From Variovorax flavidus (lineage in GTDB: Bacteria; Pseudomonadota; Gammaproteobacteria; Burkholderiales; Burkholderiaceae_C), in NCBI RefSeq assembly GCF_030317145.1, contig NZ_JASZYE010000001.1:310001-374000 (forward strand): 64,000 bases of DNA. The letters are read 5' to 3'. Below the pieces are notes generated by a model that saw nothing but the letters and a program-made list of their open reading frames with translations, had not been told where the DNA came from and made no database searches. How positions within the stretch are numbered: the stretch's first letter is position 1; the number at the start of each line of letters is the position of its first letter. Shown here piece by piece: positions 8,159-17,576 of the stretch. The position numbers and the translations under genes are program-made.

Positions 8159-9439
8159 TCAGTCGCGCGGGATCATCCAGCCGGTCTCCGCCGCGCGGCC
8201 GGGCAGGTGGAGCGCCGCCGTGGCGGCAGGCGTCTCCGCCAACAGCCGGCCTTTGCGATACACCTTGAGCCGTGTCGCGCGCAGGCGGATGGCCTCCACC
8301 GGATCGCGCGCCTGCAGCAGCACGAAGCTCGCATCGCAGCCGGCTTGGAGCCCGTAGCCCTCGAGGTGAAACACCTTGGCCGCGTTGACGGTGACTGCGT
8401 CGAAGCACTGGCGGATGCCGTCCTGGCTGGTCATCTGCGCCACGTGCAATCCCATGTGCGCCACTTCGAGCATGTCGCCCGAGCCCATGCCGTACCAGGG
8501 GTCCATCACGCAGTCGTGGCCGAAGGCGACGTTCACGCCTGCGGCCATCAGTTCGGGCACACGCGTCATGCCACGGCGCTTGGGGTAGGTGTCGTGGCGG
8601 CCTTGCAGCGTGATGTTGATGAGCGGATTCGACACCACGCCGACGCCGCTTTCGGCGATGAGCGGCAGCAGCTTGCTCACGTAGTAGTTGTCCATCGAAT
8701 GCATCGACGTGCAGTGAGAGCCCGTCACCCGACCCTGCATTCCGAGGCGCTGCGCCTCGAAGGCCAGCGTCTCGATGTGGCGCGACAGCGGATCGTCCGA
8801 TTCGTCGCAGTGCATGTCGACCAGCTTGCCGCGCTCGGCCGCGATCTCGCACAGCAGCTTCACGCTCGCGGCGCCGTCGGCCATCGTGCGCTCGAAGTGC
8901 GGAATGCCGCCGACCACGTCCACGCCCTTGTCGAGGGCGCGCTTGAGGTTCTCCACGCCACCCGGCGAGCGCAGCACGCCATCCTGCGGAAAAGCAACGA
9001 GCTGAAGGTCGAGGTAGGGCGCCACGCGACGCTTGACCTCCAGCAGCGCATCGACCGCAAGCAGGCTGGGGTCGCTTGTGTCGACATGGCTGCGGATCGC
9101 GAGCAGTCCCTTGGCGACCGCCCAGTCGCAGTACGCCAGTGCACGCTGGATCAATGCCTCGGCCGTCAGCATCGGCTTGAGCTCGCCCCAGAGCGCGATG
9201 CCCTCCAGCAGCGTGCCGCTTTCGTTGACTCGTGGCAGGCCGTAGCTGAGCGTGGCATCCATGTGGAAATGCGGGTCGATGAAATGCGGCGTGACGAGGA
9301 ATCCATGCGCATCGAGCTTTTCCGCGGCCGGTGCGTCGAGCCCGGCCGTCACTTCCTCGATGCGGCCGTCCCGCACGGCGATCGACATGCCAGCGCGACC
9401 GTCGGGGAGGGTGGCGTTGTGTACGAGGAGGTCGAGCAT
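8159..9439 (-). CDS. codA: Cytosine deaminase (amidohydrolase family)
   Basis: Metal-dependent deaminase that converts cytosine to uracil. The 426-residue product has the amidohydrolase HxH pair (His57/His59 in IDPHFHMD) and CodA-specific blocks: HCDESDDPLSRHIETLA, VTGSHCTSMHSMDNYYVSKL, NPLINITLQGRHDTYPKRRG and FGHDCVMDPWYGMGSGDMLE. AAGGAGAG precedes the ATG. It is the last gene of the minus-strand operon that also carries a nucleoside-type importer, upp and the URC genes, so it would supply uracil to those enzymes. Its start overlaps the preceding permease stop by one base. Confidence 0.9.
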   Translation of the reverse strand: MLDLLVHNATLPDGRAGMSIAVRDGRIEEVTAGLDAPAAEKLDAHGFLVTPHFIDPHFHMDATLSYGLPRVNESGTLLEGIALWGELKPMLTAEALIQRALAYCDWAVAKGLLAIRSHVDTSDPSLLAVDALLEVKRRVAPYLDLQLVAFPQDGVLRSPGGVENLKRALDKGVDVVGGIPHFERTMADGAASVKLLCEIAAERGKLVDMHCDESDDPLSRHIETLAFEAQRLGMQGRVTGSHCTSMHSMDNYYVSKLLPLIAESGVGVVSNPLINITLQGRHDTYPKRRGMTRVPELMAAGVNVAFGHDCVMDPWYGMGSGDMLEVAHMGLHVAQMTSQDGIRQCFDAVTVNAAKVFHLEGYGLQAGCDASFVLLQARDPVEAIRLRATRLKVYRKGRLLAETPAATAALHLPGRAAETGWMIPRD

Positions 9440-10362
9440 CACCTCTCTCCTTTTCGATAGGGTTTCATGAGCGCCTGTGGGTAGCTTGCCTTGCGCGCCA
9501 CCAATACCAGCGCGAGGATGGACAGGAGGTAGGGCAGCATCAGGTAGATCTGATAGGGCAGCACGGCGTCGCCAGATTGCTGCAATCGCAATTGCAGCGC
9601 ATCGAAGAAGGCGAACAGCAACGCGCCCAGCAGTGCCTTGCCGGGCCGCCAGGACGCGAACACCACCAGCGCCACGCAGATCCATCCGCGGCCGTTGATC
9701 ATGTTGAAGAAGAATGCGTTGAAGGCCGACAGCGTGAGGAAGGACCCTGCCACGCCCATCAGTGCCGAGCCCGCGACGATCGCACCGGTGCGCGTCGCAG
9801 CGACCGAGACCCCCTGGCCCTCGGCCGCTTGCGGGTTTTCGCCGACCATGCGCACGGCAAGTCCGACGGGTGTGCGGTAGAGGACATACGCCATCACCGG
9901 CACCATCAGCAACGCCAGGAGCGTGAGCGGAGTCTGCGCATCGAGTACCGGAATGTGCAGCCACTCCATCGGTGCGAAGGGCGTGACCGTGGGGGGTGTG
10001 TTGACTTTCGGAAAACTCACGCGATAGCCGTAGTAGCTCAGCGCCGTCGCCAGCAGCGTGATGCCCAGCCCGGACACATGCTGCGAGAGCGCCAGCCCGA
10101 CGGTGAGAAAGGCATGCAGCAGTCCGAAGACCGCGCCGGTCAGCGCAGCCACGCCGACGCCGAGCCACAGAGGCGCACCCGCGTACACCGCCAGCCAGCC
10201 CGCAAAGGCTCCCGCGACCATGATCCCCTCGATGCCGAGATTCAGCACGCCGGCACGCTCGCACAGCAGCACGCCGAGCGTGCCGAAGATCAAGGGCGTG
10301 GCAATGCGCAGCACCGCCACCCAGAACGAGGCATTCGAAAGAATGTCCGCGACGTCGCTCAT
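9439..10362 (-). CDS. Nucleoside/base ABC transporter permease (second)
   Basis: Integral membrane permease of the BMP/simple-sugar type (BPD_transp_2 family). The 307-residue product begins MSDVADILSNASFWVAVLRI and has about eight hydrophobic segments plus the family signature GVLNLGIEGIMVAGAF. It pairs with the 353-residue permease encoded immediately upstream, with which it overlaps by 4 bases (ATGA). Together with the double ATPase and the BMP binding protein it forms a complete importer. The neighbours codA, upp and URC genes suggest pyrimidine bases or nucleosides as cargo; this is an inference from context. Confidence 0.88.
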   Translation of the reverse strand: MSDVADILSNASFWVAVLRIATPLIFGTLGVLLCERAGVLNLGIEGIMVAGAFAGWLAVYAGAPLWLGVGVAALTGAVFGLLHAFLTVGLALSQHVSGLGITLLATALSYYGYRVSFPKVNTPPTVTPFAPMEWLHIPVLDAQTPLTLLALLMVPVMAYVLYRTPVGLAVRMVGENPQAAEGQGVSVAATRTGAIVAGSALMGVAGSFLTLSAFNAFFFNMINGRGWICVALVVFASWRPGKALLGALLFAFFDALQLRLQQSGDAVLPYQIYLMLPYLLSILALVLVARKASYPQALMKPYRKGER

Positions 10363-16218: not shown

Positions 16219-17576
16219 TGATCAAGCCCCCGGCCCTTGGCCTTCTTGAGTTCCTCGGCGTCCGGCACGACGCCGGGCGTGAAGTAGCCGGCGGCCATCT
16301 TGGCGTCCATTTCGACGCGAGCGTCGGCGGGGATCAGCTCGTCGGGGATGTTCACGCGCGTTCCAATCTCGATGCCCGAGCCCGTGATGGCATCGAACTT
16401 CATGTTGCTCATCGACACCAGGCGGTGGATCTTGCGGATGCCGAGCCAGTGGAACACGTCGGGCATCAGCTCCTGGAAGCGCATGTCCTGCACGCCGGCC
16501 ACGCATTCGGTGCGCGCGAAGTACTGGTCGGCGGTGTCCCCGCCCACCTGGCGCTTGCGCGCGTTGTAGACCAGGAACTTCGTCACCTCGCCGAGCGCAC
16601 GGCCCTCCTTGCGCGAGTAGGCGATGAGCCCGACGCCGCCGCGCTGCGCGCCCTGGATGCACTCCTCGATGGCGTGCGTGAGATAGGGGCGGCAGGTGCA
16701 GATGTCGGAGCCGAACACGTCGGAGCCGTTGCACTCGTCATGGATGCGCGCCGTCAGTTCGACATCCGGGTTGGCGAGGTCGCGCGCGTTGCCGAAGATA
16801 TACAGAGTCTGGCCGCCGATGGGCGGGAGAAACACCTCCAGGTCGGAGCGTGTCACGAGTTCGGGATACATGCCGCCGGTTTCCTCGAAGAGCACCCGGC
16901 GCAGGTCAGTCTCGGAGCAGCCGAAGCGCTTGGCGACCGCGGGCAGGTACCACACGGGCTCGATCGCGGCCTTGGTGACCATCGCCGCGCCGCCGGCCGT
17001 GAGGAACTTGCCGTCGGCCTTGAGCCGGCCCTTCTGCAAGGCCTCGATGACCTCGGGGAGGATCACATGCGCCTTGGTGATCGCGATGGTCGGCCGGATG
17101 TCGTAGCCGGCCGCGAGTTCGGCAGAGAACACGTCCGCCACCACGGCGCCCCACGGGTCGAGCGAGACGATCTTGCCGGGCTCGCTCCATTGCGGATAAG
17201 GGCCGATGGCATCGGTCGGCGCAGTATTGGTGAGGTCTGCCTTGTGGTGCGGCGACAGGGCGCCCGAGGCCACGGCCAGCGCGCGATACACACTGTAAGA
17301 CCCGCTGTGCGTGCCGATCACGTTGCGATGCGCGCGCTTGGTCGTGGTGCCGACCACCGGCCCGCGCTCGGCTGGGGTGGCCGCGCCCCACTGGATCGGC
17401 AATGCGCCGAATCCGCCGGCGTGCGAGGTCAGGCGGATGTGGCTGCGTTGGGGGGATGAGCCGGGGTACACCGGCGAGATCGACACCGACTCGGGCGGCG
17501 CGACGTCAGGGGAGGGCTCGGGAGACGTGGGAGAAAGCGATGGAGAGGATGGAGTCGGAACGGTGTCAACAGACAT
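16215..17576 (-). CDS. urc1: GTP cyclohydrolase II-like protein, URC1 type
   Basis: A 453-residue homologue of RibA that matches the uracil catabolism 1 branch. About 40 residues of Pro/Ser-rich, probably disordered N-terminus precede a family-specific N-domain. The cyclohydrolase core follows: HDECNGSDVFGSDICTCRPY keeps the three zinc-binding Cys, YSRKEGRALG matches the substrate loop, and VQDMRFQE keeps the Asp and Arg of the catalytic region. The context with URC4, upp and codA argues for pyrimidine ring opening rather than riboflavin synthesis. It is the first gene of the operon, with a GAGGG ribosome site and a good promoter upstream. Confidence 0.85.
   Translation of the reverse strand: MSVDTVPTPSSPSLSPTSPEPSPDVAPPESVSISPVYPGSSPQRSHIRLTSHAGGFGALPIQWGAATPAERGPVVGTTTKRAHRNVIGTHSGSYSVYRALAVASGALSPHHKADLTNTAPTDAIGPYPQWSEPGKIVSLDPWGAVVADVFSAELAAGYDIRPTIAITKAHVILPEVIEALQKGRLKADGKFLTAGGAAMVTKAAIEPVWYLPAVAKRFGCSETDLRRVLFEETGGMYPELVTRSDLEVFLPPIGGQTLYIFGNARDLANPDVELTARIHDECNGSDVFGSDICTCRPYLTHAIEECIQGAQRGGVGLIAYSRKEGRALGEVTKFLVYNARKRQVGGDTADQYFARTECVAGVQDMRFQELMPDVFHWLGIRKIHRLVSMSNMKFDAITGSGIEIGTRVNIPDELIPADARVEMDAKMAAGYFTPGVVPDAEELKKAKGRGLDQ

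What the first reader, a model, noticed from the sequence alone, without database searches (positions are those of the whole stretch)
8159..17576. Bacterial URC-type pyrimidine catabolism operon with its own importer
Seen: one uninterrupted minus-strand run of eight genes: URC1-like GTP cyclohydrolase II, URC4 (DUF1688), upp, BMP binding protein, double ATPase, two permeases and codA, with a single good promoter in front. Known: URC1, URC4 and a uracil phosphoribosyltransferase are required for uracil catabolism in the yeast Lachancea kluyveri by a route separate from the reductive and Rut pathways. Inference: this operon is a full bacterial module that imports cytosine, uracil or nucleosides and opens the ring of a UMP derivative. 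The activity of URC4 and the products in bacteria remain largely undescribed, and no urease or urea amidolyase gene is nearby to use released urea.
Basis: partly seen in the sequence, partly recalled or inferred. Interest (0 to 1): 0.75.

Follow-up and report, generated by a model that had tools for sequence, protein, structure and literature searches.

The report
Uracil-degradation operon with its own importer
A Variovorax-like bacterium carries one row of eight genes that probably imports cytosine or uracil, attaches ribose phosphate, opens the ring and cuts urea off the sugar; the last enzyme, so far a protein of unknown function, has the predicted fold of the enzyme that frees the vitamin-like base queuine.

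Summary
The operon is real. Eight minus-strand genes run from URC1 (17576) to codA (8159), with gaps of -49 to 153 bp; the "single good promoter" is no better than chance. It is a bacterial version of the known URC pyrimidine-catabolism pathway. In 398 Pseudomonadota genomes URC1 and URC4 occur in the same 26 genomes. They are adjacent in 90 of 90 loci, with upp in 87. An Azospirillum plasmid has the same eight genes in order. URC1 is ~86% identical to solved structures titled "UTP cyclohydrolase".

New here: a confident URC4/DUF1688 model (pLDDT 87) significantly matches only queuosine-5'-phosphate nucleosidase Qng1 (DUF2419) among solved structures (11 of 11 hits with E<=0.001). hhalign places invariant URC4 K340 and E371 on Qng1 K199 and D231, residues mutated in solved Qng1 structures (probability only 41%). 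Best reading: URC4 is an N-glycosidase that splits ribosylurea (probably its 5'-phosphate) into urea and ribose phosphate. A urease is encoded elsewhere; urease is in 23 of 26 URC genomes against 122 of 372 others. Nothing was tested biochemically.

The parts
16215..17576 (-). URC1: GTP_CH_N + GTP_cyclohydro2 protein, predicted UTP cyclohydrolase (uracil-ring opener)
   Evidence: ~86% identical to PDB 7eev/7ej3; C282, C293, C295, Y337, R366 invariant in the 15 aligned sequences and aligned to the RibA zinc cysteines and to Tyr/Arg positions that I recall as catalytic in RibA
14809..16218 (-). URC4 (DUF1688, PF07958): predicted ribosylurea(-5'-phosphate) N-glycosidase with a Qng1-like fold
   Evidence: overlaps URC1 by 4 bp (ATGA)
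14125..14754 (-). upp: uracil phosphoribosyltransferase (uracil + PRPP to UMP)
   Evidence: TIGR01091 277.7 bits, cut-off 208.35
12970..13971 (-). BMP/PnrA-family periplasmic binding protein, predicted nucleobase or nucleoside receptor
   Evidence: PF02608; best solved relatives 6pi5 (atrazine periplasmic binding protein) and 3s99; 77% identical to the Azospirillum operon's BMP protein
11417..12946 (-). double ABC ATPase of the importer
   Evidence: PF00005, two stretches
10359..11465 (-). importer permease 1 (start uncertain; annotated start overlaps the ATPase gene by 49 bp)
   Evidence: PF02653
9439..10362 (-). importer permease 2
   Evidence: PF02653; 4-bp overlap with permease 1
8159..9439 (-). 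codA: cytosine deaminase (cytosine to uracil + NH3)
   Evidence: PRK07572 802 bits; aligned nearly end to end with a PDB cytosine deaminase, metal and catalytic residues kept (species and residue roles recalled); 75% identical to the Azospirillum operon's last gene
17597..17625 (-). only sigma-70-like site found in 7600-18400; not better than chance
   Evidence: 1 found, 0.9 expected

Best explanation
The operon is a nearly self-contained URC-type pyrimidine catabolic module. (1) The BMP-type ABC importer brings in a pyrimidine, most likely the base cytosine or uracil (inferred). (2) CodA turns cytosine into uracil, releasing one NH3 (family knowledge). (3) Upp makes UMP (family knowledge); housekeeping kinases make UTP (recalled). 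(4) URC1, a zinc GTP-cyclohydrolase-II homologue, hydrolyses the uracil ring of UTP, giving ribosylurea (probably 5'-phosphate), a C3 piece (malonate semialdehyde / 3-hydroxypropionate) and pyrophosphate. The UTP substrate comes from the titles of PDB entries of ~86% identity; the products come from yeast literature and from chemistry. (5) URC4 has the predicted fold and matching active-site positions of the nucleotide N-glycosidase Qng1 and cuts the sugar-urea bond, yielding urea and ribose (5-phosphate). (6) A urease encoded on another contig turns the urea into ammonia. Steps 1, 5 and 6 are inferences from this study.
For: Gene identities. URC1 and URC4 in exactly the same 26 of 398 Pseudomonadota genomes, side by side; 98 of 100 genomes of the genus carry URC4. 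URC1-URC4 adjacency 90 of 90 and URC1-URC4-upp 87 of 90 loci, including Mycolicibacterium. All four importer genes in 39 of 90 loci and codA as well in 34, three of the 34 outside Variovorax; the same eight in order on an Azospirillum brasilense plasmid. RutR-type (YcdC-like) regulator between upp and the importer in one relative of the same order (L116); a nucleoside-phosphorylase-family gene inside the operon region in some relatives (12-locus cluster, one member scanned, and L106). PDB 7eev/7ej3 'UTP cyclohydrolase' at 85-86% identity. URC4 model pLDDT 87.3, pTM 0.86: 11 of 11 Foldseek hits with E<=0.001 are Qng1/DUF2419 (E down to 7.9e-9, probability 1.00, target TM up to 0.76), next hit E 0.55. 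Q_salvage is the second-ranked Pfam family for URC4 members (5 of 31, best E 0.0044). hhalign URC4-Qng1 E 2.8e-4 with K340-K199, Q343-Q, LT-LT, E371-D231, R407-R aligned, against E 0.1 for a URC1-Qng1 control; K340, Q343, E371, R407 invariant in 31 of 31. Yeast: the URC4 product degrades ribosylurea to urea (PMC7530994, passages). Urease E<1e-30 in 23 of 26 URC genomes, 122 of 372 others.
Against: No activity was measured. hhalign probability is only 41%; a profile search of URC4 against PDB sequences found nothing up to E 10, and Q_salvage hits are far below its cut-off (12.6 and 12.1 bits against 25 in the two shown). URC1 is the only zinc-type GTP_cyclohydro2 protein found in this genome, so a riboflavin role is not excluded. 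Three of 26 URC genomes have no convincing urease and none of the 26 has urea carboxylase over cut-off, so in those the urea has no visible fate. The importer is absent from most of the non-Variovorax loci examined and its substrate is unknown. The urease association is not corrected for phylogeny or genome size. No RutR-like operator was found near the operon.
Confidence: 0.68

Rival explanations
1. URC1 in Variovorax is (also) the GTP cyclohydrolase II of riboflavin synthesis, standing in for a lost ribA, and the operon is core for that reason.
For: In the window's genome the only other GTP_cyclohydro2 domain found sits on a RibB fusion that has lost the zinc cysteines. Only 6 of 100 genomes of the genus have a RibA-level score (197 bits or more), and the one nearly complete genome without URC4 (G480) has a zinc-type RibA.
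Against: In the family at large 122 of 200 genomes (110 of them at least 90% complete) have a single such domain and no RibA-level score; 121 score like the RibB fusion and one (G536) like URC1. The 7 of these 122 that were inspected all lack the zinc ligands. So the gap exists without URC1. URC1 differs from RibA where RibA has TNNPxK (SMSNMK), and its close homologues are deposited as UTP cyclohydrolase.
Confidence: 0.1
2. URC4 is not a glycosidase but another activity on the Qng1 scaffold (for example a ribosylurea amidohydrolase or an isomerase), so urea is not the product.
For: Qng1 D231 is a glutamate in URC4 and sequence similarity is weak. Three URC genomes lack a convincing urease.
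Against: The fold match is specific; the putative catalytic Lys, Gln, acidic residue and Arg are invariant. In yeast the URC4 product is reported to yield urea from ribosylurea (PMC7530994, passages); urease is over-represented in URC genomes.
Confidence: 0.18
3. The importer is for something else (purine, other base, vitamin) and its linkage with the URC trio in Variovorax and Azospirillum is an accident of shared regulation.
For: BMP proteins bind varied ligands (recalled); nearest NCBIfam models are putative B6 transporters, below cut-off; many URC trios lack the importer.
Against: codA follows the importer and overlaps it by one base, and the same five genes follow upp in Azospirillum with BMP 77% and codA 75% identical; they also lie in the Hydrogenophaga, Ramlibacter and G255 loci.
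Confidence: 0.15

Closest known systems
URC pyrimidine-catabolism pathway of Lachancea kluyveri (URC1, URC4, URC6) and urg1-urg2-urg3 of Schizosaccharomyces pombe
   Same: Same three protein families, clustered in S. pombe; uracil to ribosylurea to urea in L. kluyveri (PMC7530994, PMC3869809, PMC2174524, passages).
   Different: Bacterial operon-like row with a dedicated BMP-type ABC importer and cytosine deaminase; urease on another contig instead of urea amidolyase; no zinc-finger regulator gene in the row.
UTP cyclohydrolase, PDB 7eev / 7ej3
   Same: 85-86% identical over the URC1 core.
   Different: Only the entry titles and aligned sequences were seen; source organism and assay data were not.
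Qng1 / DUF2419 queuosine-5'-monophosphate nucleosidase (PDB 7u07, 7u91, 7ulc, 7ugk)
   Same: Predicted fold of URC4; K199, Q, D231 and R positions match K340, Q343, E371, R407.
   Different: 13-19% identity in the fold alignment, URC4 longer, D231 replaced by E371; the hits seen fail the Pfam Q_salvage cut-off.
GTP cyclohydrolase II (RibA)
   Same: Zinc cysteines and the aligned Tyr and Arg kept in URC1.
   Different: Extra N-terminal GTP_CH_N domain; TNNPxK motif replaced by SMSNMK; TIGR00505 48.9 bits against a cut-off of 205.85.
Rut and reductive pyrimidine pathways
   Same: Same overall purpose.
   Different: No RutA (TIGR03612) and no PRK08318 match (recalled as dihydropyrimidine dehydrogenase) over cut-off in this genome, only weak hits; other enzymes of these pathways were not searched.

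Membership tests
URC pathway | URC1, URC4 and uracil phosphoribosyltransferase encoded together | tested here: met
URC pathway | URC1 and URC4 required for uracil use as nitrogen source | not testable with these tools
   needs knock-out strains
URC pathway | a urea-using enzyme in the same genome | tested here: met
   urease gamma, beta and alpha, UreE, UreF, a UreG-type (CobW/HypB/UreG) and UreJ-type genes together on contig C25; UreD not looked for
RibA / GTP cyclohydrolase II | passes the curated RibA cut-off | tested here: not met
   TIGR00505 48.9 bits against 205.85; PRK00393 58.4 against 148
UTP cyclohydrolase (7eev) | full-length sequence similarity | tested here: met
   phmmer E 6.4e-247 over residues 43-452, 86% identity
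UTP cyclohydrolase (7eev) | hydrolysis of UTP | not testable with these tools
   no assay
Qng1 / Q_salvage (PF10343) | passes the Pfam gathering score (25 bits) | tested here: not met
   12.6 and 12.1 bits in the two members shown; best E 0.0044 among 31; the window protein itself has no Q_salvage hit
Qng1 / Q_salvage (PF10343) | Qng1 fold | tested here: met
   Foldseek on the predicted model: E 7.9e-9, probability 1.00, target TM 0.75
Qng1 / Q_salvage (PF10343) | Lys199 and Asp231 (residues mutated in solved structures) | tested here: inconclusive
   Lys kept (K340), Asp replaced by Glu (E371), both invariant
BMP / PnrA ABC importers | BMP receptor + double ATPase + two permeases | tested here: met
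BMP / PnrA ABC importers | binding of nucleobase or nucleoside | not testable with these tools
   no binding assay

The most novel reading that the evidence does not exclude
DUF1688 and the queuine-salvage enzyme Qng1 belong to one superfamily of nucleotide N-glycosidases. URC4 is its uracil-catabolic branch, a ribosylurea-5'-phosphate nucleosidase using Lys340 and Glu371 in place of Lys199 and Asp231, so that URC1 and URC4 together dismantle uridine nucleotides into urea, a C3 acid and ribose phosphate without any redox step.
Probability: 0.6. Interest if true: 0.65.

Novelty: new variant of a known kind. Interest (0 to 1): 0.55.

Why it matters
URC4/DUF1688 is still labelled 'unknown function' in Pfam although it is reported as essential for uracil use in a yeast (PMC7530994, passages). 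A specific structural match to a nucleotide N-glycosidase with conserved active-site positions turns a genetic assignment into a definite reaction and named residues, and links pyrimidine breakdown to queuine salvage. The operon also offers a culturable genus with importer, deaminase, ring opener and glycosidase side by side.

Tried and rejected
Promoter claim: rejected as no better than shuffled sequence. RutR operator (pattern recalled): no site near the operon; 2 three-mismatch hits in the window, 1.34 expected. Rfam at gathering thresholds: nothing in 7500-18500. Sequence search of URC4 against solved structures: nothing meaningful by phmmer and no hit to E 10 with the A3 profile; the Qng1 link came from fold, weak Q_salvage hits and hhalign. 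The AF2 model of URC1 was poor (pLDDT 49.7) and was used only to read the titles of its near-identical PDB entries. 'URC1 replaces ribA' was considered seriously and rejected as the main reading after the family survey. Recount of that survey from its transcribed genome table: 29 of 200 RibA-type (best E 1e-49 or better), 43 with two or more matches but none RibA-type, 122 with one match and none RibA-type, 6 with none; classes rest on score, and only the RibA-type loci and ten further stretches were looked at. Urea carboxylase as alternative urea sink: 0 of 26 carriers against 45 of 372. The first urease count (23 of 26 vs 135 of 372) used the over-cut-off tally, which includes weak hits; I replaced it with E < 1e-30 (173 matching genomes less 28 weak ones, counted by eye; Fisher). 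The match of URC4 E439..W443 to Qng1 D298..W302 (active-site residues according to passages of PMC11592518) is by eye only, lies outside the hhalign alignment, and E439 is Q in one of 31. In 'importer' means best tblastn hits over 55% identity for all four genes somewhere in the locus; order and strand were read, not scored. Gene calling in relatives was crude; neighbour names rest on Pfam scans of 30 chosen ORFs, several without a match. Literature: all ten searches used; no paper on 7eev was found in this library, and I had no search left for the words 'UTP cyclohydrolase', so I cannot say whether URC4 enzymology is already in print. The listing for DUF1688 (4 of 4 papers) and the 8 of 31 listed for queuosine/nucleosidase/DUF2419 showed no title or abstract start linking the two families.
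Full report
What is there. The window is from a 6.6-Mb genome that I take to be Variovorax, since its URC4 is 97% identical to that of Variovorax sp. J22R24. On the minus strand, eight genes follow one another: URC1 17576-16215, URC4 16218-14809, upp 14754-14125, BMP receptor 13971-12970, double ATPase 12946-11417, permeases 11465-10359 and 10362-9439, and codA 9439-8159. 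Four of the seven junctions overlap; the longest gap is 153 bp. The only promoter-like site found is at chance level.

Is the grouping meaningful? In a draw of 398 Pseudomonadota genomes, DUF1688 (URC4) is found in 26 and GTP_CH_N (URC1) in the same 26, with none carrying one alone (set comparison). In 100 genomes of the window's genus 98 have URC4; the two without are G407 (89% complete) and G480. I compared the window genes with 90 loci: 65 from named genomes and 25 stretches from the phylum draw. URC1 and URC4 are adjacent in 90 of 90; upp joins them on the same strand in 87. The three exceptions are L097 (upp divergent), L106 (no upp found) and L103 (contig end). All four importer genes are found in 39 of 90 loci and codA as well in 34. 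The other five of the 39 are L022, L024, L026, L053 and L113, whose importer genes lie near a locus end. Of the 34, three (L042 Ramlibacter, L043 Hydrogenophaga, L116 from G255 of the window's order) are outside Variovorax. An Azospirillum brasilense plasmid, an alphaproteobacterial record, has the same eight genes in the same order; its BMP and last gene are 77% and 75% identical to the window's BMP and codA. The Mycolicibacterium/Mycobacterium loci examined have the trio without the importer. NCBI annotation already uses the name 'URC4/urg3 family protein'.

URC1. It has an N-terminal GTP_CH_N domain and a GTP_cyclohydro2 domain. It fails the RibA cut-offs but is nearly identical to PDB 7eev and 7ej3, whose Foldseek descriptions read 'Structure of UTP cyclohydrolase' and 'UTP cyclohydrolase' with 85-86% identity. 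The PDB molecule name itself is 'GTP cyclohydrolase II'. The zinc cysteines C282, C293, C295 and Y337 and R366, which align with RibA positions that I recall as catalytic, are invariant in the 15 aligned sequences. By analogy with GTP cyclohydrolase II, hydrolysis of UTP at N3-C4 and C6-N1 would leave urea on the sugar and release a C3 unit (inference). [quoted passage not shown]

URC4. There is no solved relative by sequence. From 34 sequences AlphaFold2 gives a confident model (mean pLDDT 87.3, pTM 0.86). Foldseek against the PDB returns 11 chains with E <= 0.001; all 11 are DUF2419/Qng1, the bacterial and human queuosine-salvage enzymes, with probability 1.00 and target TM-scores of 0.68-0.76. 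The next hit has E 0.55. Two sequence-level checks agree, weakly. Scanning 31 URC4 proteins against Pfam, Q_salvage is the most frequent family after DUF1688 (5 of 31, best E 0.0044); the hits seen are below its cut-off, and the window protein itself has none. hhalign of the URC4 and Qng1 alignments gives E 2.8e-4 (probability 41%), against 0.1 for a URC1-Qng1 control. That alignment pairs URC4 PFHKLSQWL with Qng1 RFYKRAQIL, LTALPEYRN with LTAFADYKV and VEWRALT with VEIRAAT. The PDB mutants K199C and D231N fall on the K and D of these motifs (sequences), hence on URC4 K340 and E371. K340, Q343, E371 and R407 are invariant in 31 of 31 sequences. Qng1 acts on queuosine 5'-monophosphate (PDB titles; PMC11592518, passages). 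I therefore infer that URC4 cuts the N-glycosidic bond of ribosylurea, probably as its 5'-phosphate.

Supply and disposal. The BMP receptor's closest solved relatives are 6pi5 'atrazine periplasmic binding protein' and 3s99. I recall these as purine-base or triazine binders, which would favour a base over a nucleoside. CodA aligns nearly end to end with solved cytosine deaminases. In some relatives a gene of one cluster lies between upp or bmp and the next operon gene (12 loci); the one member scanned, in L031, is a PNP_UDP_1 phosphorylase, and L106 has such a gene near URC1. This fits nucleoside use as well. A regulator of the YcdC/RutR type sits between upp and the importer in L116. The window genome has no RutA and no PRK08318 match (recalled as dihydropyrimidine dehydrogenase) over cut-off, only weak hits. 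Its only urease alpha match is on contig C25 with urease gamma and beta, UreE, UreF, UreG-type and UreJ-type genes. Across the phylum sample, urease with E < 1e-30 is in 23 of 26 URC genomes and 122 of 372 others (Fisher p 2e-8, not corrected for phylogeny or genome size). Urea carboxylase over cut-off is in 0 of 26 against 45 of 372. G119, G256 and G373, all of one family, have URC without a convincing urease.

The riboflavin question. The second half is nearly true: the other GTP_cyclohydro2 domain found, on a RibB fusion, has lost the zinc cysteines, and only 6 of 100 genomes of the genus have a RibA-level score. However, in 200 genomes of the family 122 have one such domain and no RibA-level score; 121 of these score like the RibB fusion and one (G536) like URC1. 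The seven of these inspected all lack the zinc ligands. The missing RibA therefore seems wider than URC1 carriage. I keep a dual role at 10%.

Verdict. Observation partly confirmed (all but the promoter); interpretation partly supported. It is a bacterial URC operon, a known kind, in a variant with its own importer and deaminase. The addition of this study is a specific, testable enzymatic assignment for URC4/DUF1688. Shown: gene content, gene order in relatives, co-occurrence, predicted-fold match, conserved residues. Inferred: substrates, products, direction of flow, importer ligand.

Noticed in passing
G000:C1:108150-108608 (L067): Most genomes of this family sample (122 of 200) show a single GTP_cyclohydro2 domain and no RibA-level score; in the window genome and the 7 single-domain genomes inspected that domain is a RibB-fusion type without zinc cysteines. 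Which enzyme opens GTP for riboflavin there is not apparent.
   Followed up: partly
G480 (L172-L174): The only genome of 100 in the genus sample that is nearly complete and lacks URC4 carries a zinc-type RibA, which most of its relatives lack by score; a single case, so possibly chance.
   Followed up: partly
window 17736-18943: ECF sigma factor gene followed by a small gene overlapping it by 4 bp (perhaps its membrane anti-sigma, guess), divergent from URC1; a homologue is present in 39 of the 90 relative loci, upstream of URC1 at varying distance, so a link to the operon is doubtful.
   Followed up: partly
window 18970-22365: Lrp/AsnC-like regulator and a divergent ABC importer (binding protein, then ATPase) next to the sigma factor; named by eye from the translations.
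   Followed up: no
L022:13165-15984: A 939-residue polysaccharide deacetylase + caspase-like + TPR protein is inserted inside the operon between bmp and the ATPase gene (same gene cluster in L024, L026 and L113).
   Followed up: no
L175, L176: Qng1-type 'queuosine salvage' genes on large plasmids of four linuron-soil Variovorax strains and one Azospira.
   Followed up: no
G404, G451: The URC4 match is split into two abutting pieces in these two genomes of the genus, either real decay or assembly error.
   Followed up: no
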